This document shows positions 36,369-36,718 of a stretch of 54,102 nucleotides of DNA, piece by piece. The DNA is taken from contig NZ_JAVDDT010000012.1 in the NCBI RefSeq assembly GCF_030848495.1, positions 1-54,102 on the forward strand, given 5' to 3'. A program made the translations under genes and the position numbers. Each line of letters opens with the position of its first letter. The first letter of the stretch is position 1. Source of the stretch: Natronospira bacteriovora. GTDB lineage: Bacteria; Pseudomonadota; Gammaproteobacteria; Natronospirales; Natronospiraceae. A model generated the notes under the pieces. It was not told the origin of the DNA. It ran no database searches and saw only the letters and a list, made by a program, of their open reading frames with translations.

Positions 36369-36398
36369 GTGACCGGGAGGCGCGACGAAGGCTATAAT
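36369..36398 (+). promoter_or_regulatory. Promoter of the tRNA-Ile2 locus
   Basis: GTGACC (36369-36374) and a perfect TATAAT (36393-36398) are 18 bases apart. They lie 33 bases before the truncated tRNA copy and about 245 bases before the intact tRNA. A GC-rich CGCGGGC follows the -10, like the discriminator of stringently controlled tRNA promoters. No comparable promoter is seen between the two tRNA sequences. Confidence 0.65.
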
Positions 36399-36430
36399 CG
36401 CGGGCTGGTCTGGTGCAGCATTCATTTCAA

Positions 36431-36461
36431 GGGCCTGTAGCTCAGTTGGTTAGAGCAGGGG
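36431..36461 (+). pseudogene. Truncated 5' half of tRNA-Ile2
   Basis: These 31 bases are identical to the first 31 bases of the intact tRNA at 36642: acceptor 5' strand, D arm and the 5' strand of the anticodon stem. Two more bases upstream (AA) also match. Identity stops abruptly in the anticodon stem/loop region. A 9-base anticodon-loop-like string CATAATCCC reappears at 36566-36574, but no matching T arm and acceptor 3' strand follow. It is not a functional tRNA as it stands. Confidence 0.75.
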
Positions 36462-36641
36462 GCGAACCGGGACCGAAATGCCGGTGGCATTTCGCAGCCC
36501 GGTGAGCGACCGGCCATGGATGGCCGGGCTGGACCGCGCGCGGAGCAGGATTGCGCAGCGCGAGGCATAATCCCGTGCGGTCGAGGGTGCTCAATGCACC
36601 CGAGAACGCTGGCCTGAATCCGGCACGACACTGTTTTCGAA
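36462..36641 (+). other. Hairpin-rich transcribed spacer of unknown function
   Basis: About 180 bases without an ORF that can fold into four consecutive hairpins: 36466-36503 (6-bp outer stem plus 9-bp perfect inner stem), 36510-36527 (8-bp perfect stem around GG), 36532-36582 (9-bp outer stem with one G-U pair plus an internal GGATT/AATCC stem) and 36585-36601 (6-bp stem, 5-nt loop). It lies between the tRNA promoter and the intact tRNA. A 10-base string TCCGGCACGA (36619-36628) recurs just after the intact tRNA (36735-36744), hinting that the whole tRNA unit was duplicated. Confidence 0.6.
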
Positions 36642-36718
36642 GGGCCTGTAGCTCAGTTGGTTAGAGCAGGGGACTCATAATCCCTTGGTCCCAGGTTCGA
36701 GTCCTGGCGGGCCCACCA
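36642..36718 (+). tRNA. tRNA-Ile2 (anticodon CAU, decodes AUA after lysidine modification)
   Basis: A complete 77-base tRNA with encoded CCA end. The acceptor stem GGGCCTG pairs with CGGGCCC (one G-U pair). The D arm has AGCTCAGTTGGTTAGAGC, the anticodon loop is CTCATAA between GGGGA-side and TCCC-side strands, and the T arm is CCAGG TTCGAGT CCTGG. The ACTCATAATCCC context is typical of tRNA-Ile2(CAU) rather than elongator or initiator Met tRNA. It would be matured by TilS (lysidine) and receive t6A37 through TsaD, which is also in this window. Confidence 0.92.

What the first reader, a model, noticed from the sequence alone, without database searches (positions are those of the whole stretch)
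36369..36718. tRNA-Ile2 is transcribed behind a truncated copy of itself and a hairpin-rich spacer
Seen: a good promoter (36369-36398) fires into a 31-base exact copy of the 5' half of tRNA-Ile2 (36431-36461). This is followed by about 180 bases with four stem-loops, and only then the intact tRNA (36642-36718). No second promoter is visible. The truncated copy ends in the anticodon arm; CATAATCCC (36566-36574), identical to the anticodon-loop/3' stem string of the real tRNA, occurs 104 bases later. The 3' half of the real tRNA could in principle pair with either 5' half. Known: tRNA-Ile2 is usually the only reader of AUA and is usually single-copy. Inference: the leader could be a decoy that slows tRNA folding, a sensor of TilS/TsaD or RNase P activity, an uncharacterised intron-like element, or an element that landed in a duplicated tRNA.
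Basis: partly seen in the sequence, partly recalled or inferred. Interest (0 to 1): 0.7.

Follow-up and report, generated by a model that had tools for sequence, protein, structure and literature searches.

The report
Hairpin element regenerating the tRNA gene
The odd half-copy in front of this essential tRNA gene marks where a short, non-coding, hairpin-forming mobile element, one of a widespread and apparently undescribed family, inserted and left an intact second copy of the gene beside it; the same happens at many tRNA, 5S rRNA and protein genes across Gammaproteobacteria.

Summary
In detail: a 33-nt exact repeat (36429-36461 / 36640-36672), one promoter, a structured spacer and one intact tRNA-Ile2. 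Its 73-nt core (two hairpins; 17 of 25 pairs show compensatory change) recurs next to tRNA-Phe, tRNA-Pro and 5S rRNA in this Natronospira-like genome, in 15/19 genomes of the order, 37/274 of the class and 25/119 of a Pseudomonas-like family. Geometry is constant: truncated gene ending in GG | core | tail | intact gene. Of 62 cores within 200 nt of a tRNA, 61 have the intact tRNA on the core's 3' side, 33 in sense and 28 in antisense, so tRNA regulation cannot be the common theme. Copies also sit in sucD, hslU and murG starts, at stop codons, and in CRISPR repeats. Hairpin loops carry CANGGANG, the CsrA/RsmA motif. In the window, remnants of the 3' half and 3' flank suggest that the whole tRNA was duplicated and its first copy interrupted. 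The enzyme is unknown; reverse transcriptase, Y1, IS110 and DUF559 genes do not track copy number. No Rfam family or paper in the held library describes it.

The parts
36369..36398 (+). sigma-70-like promoter of the tRNA-Ile2 transcript; same position relative to upstream gene and tRNA as in the empty G002 locus
36429..36461 (+). truncated first copy of tRNA-Ile2 (31 nt of tRNA plus 2 nt leader), ending in GG at the insertion point ('B')
36460..36532 (+). conserved element core as hit by covariance model R1, including the two G of the target
36462..36507 (+). hairpin I: long imperfect hairpin, tip CGAAATGCC-GGT-GGCATTTCG, foot GCGA/GAGC
36510..36527 (+). hairpin II, CCGGCC-ATGGAT-GGCCGG; CATGGATG matches CANGGANG (CsrA/RsmA-type)
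36533..36565 (+). third structured module (GCGCGGAGCAGGATTGCGCAGCGCG, loop AGGAT); similar modules in L067, L068, L072, L075
36566..36574 (+). CATAATCCC: remnant of the 3' part of the interrupted first tRNA copy (also retained at tRNA-Ile2 in G157, L309)
36585..36601 (+). hairpin GGGTGC-TCAAT-GCACCC in the tail; possible degenerate remnant of the T arm (weak)
   Evidence: inference
36613..36628 (+). CCTGAATCCGGCACGA: remnant of the 3' flank of the first tRNA copy, 14/16 identical to 36729-36744
   Evidence: 4 of 2000 shuffles as good
36640..36672 (+). second copy of the repeat (B'), leading without break into the intact gene
36642..36718 (+). intact tRNA-Ile2 (CAU)
36749..36771 (+). terminator-like hairpin behind the tRNA

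Best explanation
The spacer is one copy of a family of short non-coding mobile DNA elements. Shown: a 73-80 nt core of two covarying hairpins, often followed by a third, stands directly behind a GG dinucleotide inside a gene; the gene is truncated at that GG and begins again, complete, on the core's 3' side. In the window the tRNA-Ile2 gene appears to have been duplicated together with its 3' flank (unit about 107-116 nt) and its first copy interrupted by about 104 nt, so that one functional tRNA remains. Inferred: the core is recognised through its folded arms and inserted 3' of GG by an enzyme acting in trans; insertion into an indispensable gene survives only when the event also leaves an intact copy, and because that copy is always downstream of the core the duplication is probably part of the insertion or repair event rather than a prior accident. 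Inferred: in transcribed copies the CANGGANG loops can bind CsrA/RsmA; the tRNA itself is freed from the longer leader by RNase P as usual.
For: Dispersed copies at tRNA-Phe, tRNA-Pro and 5S in the own genome. Compensatory changes at 17 of 25 pairs, 0/500 shuffles (474 compensatory cells in the wider set, on an alignment fitted to the model). 61 of 62 tRNA-adjacent cores have the intact tRNA on their 3' side. A left tag of 22 nt ending in GG recurs downstream and ends at the same junction: 41 of 123 above the 99% null level, 78 at 16/22 or better against a 95% null of 15. L163: 94-nt exact duplication plus a 12-nt remnant of the gene's other side. Arrays of such units at tRNA-Ile2 in G037. Uninterrupted, syntenic tRNA-Ile2 locus in same-genus G002. 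Gene starts regenerated in sucD, hslU and murG. The window core is 0.79-0.89 identical to cores at other targets in its own genome but 0.59-0.75 to tRNA-Ile2 cores of G037 and G157.
Against: No excision, circle or fresh jump was seen and no enzyme was found. About a third of copies show no repeated target, so duplication is not obligatory. Over all genomes, within-genome similarity of cores at different targets does not exceed between-genome similarity at the same target (p = 0.21), so part of the pattern may be vertical inheritance. In sucD the truncated and intact copies differ mostly at synonymous sites, which a freely decaying remnant should not do.
Confidence: 0.78

Rival explanations
1. 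A cis-acting tRNA-Ile2 leader: decoy, folding brake or sensor of tRNA processing.
For: It lies in the presumed transcript between the only promoter and the tRNA; strong fold; four further genomes carry an element at tRNA-Ile2 (G037, G157, G016, G007).
Against: Same core at many other genes, in antisense nearly as often as in sense; absent at tRNA-Ile2 in G002.
Confidence: 0.05
2. A mobile CsrA/RsmA-binding RNA: the element is kept because its transcripts bind or titrate CsrA/RsmA, or use it to control host genes; mobility is only the means of spread. (Compatible with the best explanation; it adds a function.)
For: CANGGANG in hairpin II of 92/121 distinct cores and again in the 60-nt tail of 96/121, against about 0.07 and 0.12 expected; two sites 27 nt apart at the mode. 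CsrA/RsmA recognises A(N)GGA and can bridge sites 10-63 nt apart (PMC4066749). In P. putida, Rsm proteins co-purify intergenic regions near ISPpu8, one a long palindrome (PMC7937890; identity with this family untested).
Against: No binding or expression data; antisense copies would not present the motif in the tRNA transcript; the window copy has one full CANGGANG and one AGGAT loop only. The motif could instead serve DNA recognition.
Confidence: 0.3
3. An RNA-templated (retro) element inserted by reverse transcription or reverse splicing.
For: Structured core; repeated target of variable length; one fixed and one variable junction.
Against: No reverse transcriptase found in copy-rich G010, G015, G011, G017, G001, G005 or in G000, several of them incomplete; no group I or II intron match in the window.
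Confidence: 0.08
4. Remnants (att sites) of ordinary tRNA-targeting integrative elements.
For: Truncated gene fragments at tRNA genes with the gene restored are typical of such islands (established knowledge).
Against: Same short hairpin core at every target, no integrase or cargo, regular arrays of about 140 nt, insertion at gene starts, stop codons and CRISPR repeats.
Confidence: 0.05

Closest known systems
REP / REPIN palindromes mobilised by RAYT (TnpA_REP, Y1 HUH transposase)
   Same: Short, non-coding, hairpin DNA, many copies, short motif next to the hairpin, probably moved in trans; some occur as inverted pairs (G099).
   Different: Much longer two- to three-hairpin core; targets tRNA, rRNA and protein genes after GG and regenerates the gene; Y1 genes do not track copies.
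IS200/IS605-type non-autonomous derivatives
   Same: Insertion 3' of a fixed short motif and hairpin ends (from knowledge of the family).
   Different: No Y1 transposase found in several copy-rich genomes; duplicated target in most gene insertions.
E. coli rtT / tyrT repeats (Rfam RtT)
   Same: Tandem units next to a tRNA, each with a piece of that tRNA (from memory).
   Different: Not matched by the window stretch in cmscan up to E = 10; known from one tRNA locus (from memory).
Rickettsia palindromic elements (RPE)
   Same: Short palindromic elements in protein and RNA genes that spare gene function (from memory).
   Different: RPEs stay inside the reading frame; here the gene is cut and repeated.
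CsrB/RsmZ-type CsrA-binding RNAs
   Same: Repeated hairpins with GGA loops.
   Different: Dispersed element with a conserved hairpin I that lacks GGA; not a single regulatory gene.
Group I intron of tRNA-Ile(CAU) in Azoarcus
   Same: About 200 nt within the anticodon arm of the same tRNA (from memory).
   Different: No group I match; the downstream copy is intact, so nothing needs splicing.

Membership tests
REP/RAYT elements | Y1 (TnpA_REP) transposase in the genome | tested here: inconclusive
   Present in G000, but none found in G015 (80% complete), G011 (91%), G007 (100%), G013 or G003, which carry 43, 27, 16, 8 and 7 matches; present in G002 and G004, which carry none
REP/RAYT elements | 20-40 nt palindrome with GTAG or CGTC tag | tested here: not met
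   Core is 73-80 nt with two hairpins and starts GYGA behind GG; size and tags of REPs from PMC3733652
IS200/IS605-type elements | insertion 3' of a fixed short target without target duplication | tested here: inconclusive
   Fixed GG met (51/52 and 49/52 at positions -2/-1; the tag match included GG); duplication present in most gene insertions, absent in about a third of copies
rtT RNA (Rfam) | match to the Rfam model | tested here: not met
   No RtT among cmscan matches up to E = 10 on window 36330-36800
Group I intron | conserved catalytic core | tested here: not met
   No intron family among cmscan matches up to E = 10
Retroelement / group II intron derivative | reverse transcriptase available | tested here: not met
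   None found in G000, G001, G005, G010, G011, G015, G017; some genomes incomplete
IS110-mobilised element | DEDD transposase in the genome | tested here: not met
   None found in G000, G010, G011, G017 or G007
Homing element with DUF559-type endonuclease | linked DUF559 gene | tested here: not met
   DUF559 in 8/19 genomes; the ten inspected loci show no array of GGA hairpins like the element's
CsrA/RsmA-binding RNA | GGA hairpin loops at bridging distance | tested here: met
   75/121 cores have two CANGGANG within core plus 60 nt, modal spacing 27 nt
CsrA/RsmA-binding RNA | binding to CsrA/RsmA | not testable with these tools
   Needs gel shift or CLIP
Tyrosine-integrase island | integrase and cargo between the gene pieces | tested here: not met
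   57-310 nt between core and second junction, nearly always under 190: too short for an integrase gene

The most novel reading that the evidence does not exclude
A previously undescribed class of ORF-less mobile element, widespread in Gammaproteobacteria, that inserts 3' of GG in tRNA, 5S rRNA, CRISPR-repeat and essential protein genes by a directional mechanism that itself rebuilds an intact target copy downstream, and whose RNA carries paired CsrA/RsmA-binding hairpins.
Probability: 0.35. Interest if true: 0.85.

Novelty: new variant of a known kind. Interest (0 to 1): 0.66.

Why it matters
Insertion into single-copy essential RNA genes should be lethal. A family that does this repeatedly, always leaving the intact copy on the same side, points to an insertion or repair route that couples integration to target duplication; the enzyme is open to discovery. 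It also explains truncated tRNA and 5S fragments that annotation leaves unexplained, and if the GGA loops bind CsrA/RsmA it would be a mobile source of binding sites for a global regulator.

Tried and rejected
DUF559 homing endonuclease: not linked. RAYT/Y1, reverse transcriptase and IS110: do not track copy number. Group I intron, rtT and other Rfam families: no match in the window stretch; a gathering-score scan of 14 loci found only tRNA and rRNA. Phage, plasmid and E. coli collections: no match. Exact pattern in viral contigs: none. G-U scarcity as a test of DNA versus RNA folding: uninformative, since tRNA acceptor stems of the same loci are equally poor in G-U. Intragenomic spread test over all genomes: not significant. 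Literature searches for truncated-tRNA repeats, sequence strings, RAYT/REP, CsrA motifs and ISPpu8 found no description of this family in the held open-access library; subscription papers are not covered.

Full report
Observation. The repeat, the single promoter, the structured spacer and the single intact tRNA are all present. The exact repeat is 33 nt, of which 31 are tRNA. A second short repeat, 36613-36628 against 36729-36744 (14/16; 4 of 2000 shuffles reach the score), links the tail of the spacer to the 3' flank of the tRNA. Three offsets agree: 211 minus the 104 nt between GGGG and CATAATCCC is 107, CATAATCCC is offset by 110, the 3' flank by 116. The simplest reading is a tandem duplication of the tRNA with its flanks, whose first copy is interrupted by about 104 nt and has since decayed.

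The spacer is dispersed. A search of the own genome (G000, 3.0 Mb in 15 contigs; close relatives are recorded as Natronospira) found three further similar copies, and a pattern search a fifth. They lie beside tRNA-Phe, tRNA-Pro(CGG) and, twice in tandem, 5S rRNA. Each is preceded by a truncated piece of the neighbouring gene, ending in GG, and followed by the intact gene. Same-genus G002 has a syntenic, uninterrupted tRNA-Ile2: the upstream gene is 56% identical and the promoter lies in the same place.

Structure. Fourteen cores from nine kinds of target were aligned. In 25 pairs, 94% of cells pair and 17 pairs show changes on both sides, against 6.7 in shuffles, 0/500 as high; sliding the partner destroys the signal. 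In 81 distinct cores matched by the model, 474 cells carry compensatory changes; that alignment is fitted to the model, so this figure leans towards the structure. Hairpin I has a foot GYGA/GARC in which Y and R covary (U-A 42, C-G 37).

Distribution. Model R1 hits 15 of 19 genomes of the order, up to 57 matches in one, and 37 of 274 sampled genomes of the class. Model R2 hits 13 of 398 of the phylum, four of these outside the class with one match each, and 25 of 119 genomes of the family of G338.

Geometry. Of 125 hits examined, 62 have a tRNA within 200 nt; in 61 the tRNA is on the 3' side of the core, 33 in sense and 28 in antisense, mostly 40-60 nt away. The 22 nt left of the core recur downstream and end at the same junction in most of these. 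The junction follows GG (51/52 and 49/52) and is followed by A or T in 40 of 52 (the match used a tag that included GG, so this is not fully independent). The duplicated stretch is exact over 94 nt in L163, with a 12-nt remnant of the other side of the gene, and over 33-57 nt in several others. In G037 the tRNA-Ile2 gene has seven units of about 145 nt on one side and two in opposite orientation on the other.

Protein genes and other targets. sucD of G016 and G011 begins twice: a truncated first copy, the core, then a full gene. The two starts differ by 11 and 9 changes in synonymous codons, with one and no amino-acid change, so the truncated start may still be translated and constrained, or the copies have another history; this is unexplained. 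hslU (L165) and murG (L180, and degenerate in L183) show the same layout (gene names from the translated starts and my own knowledge). In the Pseudomonas-like family, 14 of 16 inspected copies start exactly at the stop codon of genes that end in Gly, by their C-termini xerC-, rimK-, class II ribonucleotide-reductase- and gatB-like, the element's GGGTGA supplying or preserving the stop. In G615 several copies lie in what looks like a type I-F CRISPR array, within the repeat (repeat type from memory).

RNA motif. 92 of 121 distinct cores have CANGGANG in hairpin II and 96 have it again within 60 nt, at a few fixed positions, against 0.07 and 0.12 expected from flanking DNA. This fits A(N)GGA, bound by CsrA/RsmA, at a spacing one dimer can bridge (PMC4066749). 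A P. putida study found intergenic regions near ISPpu8, one a long palindrome, among RNAs bound by Rsm proteins (PMC7937890); whether these are the same elements was not tested.

Mechanism. Shown: position behind GG, polarity, duplication, conserved fold, recurrence at unrelated targets. Inferred: mobility in trans and recognition of the fold. Two duplication models remain. In the first, duplication belongs to the event, for example a strand switch back to the upstream side after insertion, which explains the polarity. In the second, insertions are simple and only those in pre-existing duplications survive, which explains why intergenic and stop-codon copies lack a repeated target but not the polarity. 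Enzyme candidates tested by presence in 19 genomes (Y1, reverse transcriptase, IS110, DUF559) do not track copies; several genomes are incomplete drafts, so absence is not proof.

For the window itself. The tRNA is presumably transcribed from 36369-36398 through the element and released by RNase P; no regulatory role is needed. The absence of the element at tRNA-Ile2 in G002 and its sense/antisense indifference elsewhere argue against a tRNA-specific role.

Novelty. No Rfam family matched the window or the 14 loci scanned (beyond tRNA and rRNA) and no paper in the held library describes it; subscription literature was not searchable, so prior description cannot be excluded. It behaves like a small non-autonomous mobile palindromic element but fails tested features of the known families.

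Noticed in passing
L187 (G016 sucD) and L190 (G011 sucD): Truncated and intact sucD starts differ almost only at synonymous sites (11 and 9 changes in synonymous codons, one and no amino-acid change), as if the truncated leader ORF were still translated and constrained.
   Followed up: partly
L305 (G615:C12:87000-88800): Element copies lie inside what looks like a type I-F CRISPR array, interrupting repeats after GTGG.
   Followed up: no
L318-L333, L298-L304 (Pseudomonas-like family): Element copies start exactly at the stop codon of genes ending in Gly (xerC-, rimK-, class II RNR- and gatB-like), the element's GGGTGA giving or preserving the stop.
   Followed up: partly
L067, L068, L077, L238: Tails of several copies contain an inverted copy of the target around the insertion point (e.g. 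AGGTTCAAATCCTC at tRNA-Pro), origin unexplained.
   Followed up: partly
L168-L174 (G001), L152-L153 (G084): A subset of intergenic copies without repeated target is flanked by long outer inverted repeats; in G001 the arms differ in sequence between copies but stay complementary.
   Followed up: no
L147 (G037) 2894-4227: tRNA-Ile2 flanked by seven element units on one side and two inverted units on the other.
   Followed up: yes
L165 (G225 hslU): The truncated hslU reading frame runs through the element and ends in a TGA that overlaps the ATG of the intact gene (ATGA), as in translational coupling; may be chance.
   Followed up: no
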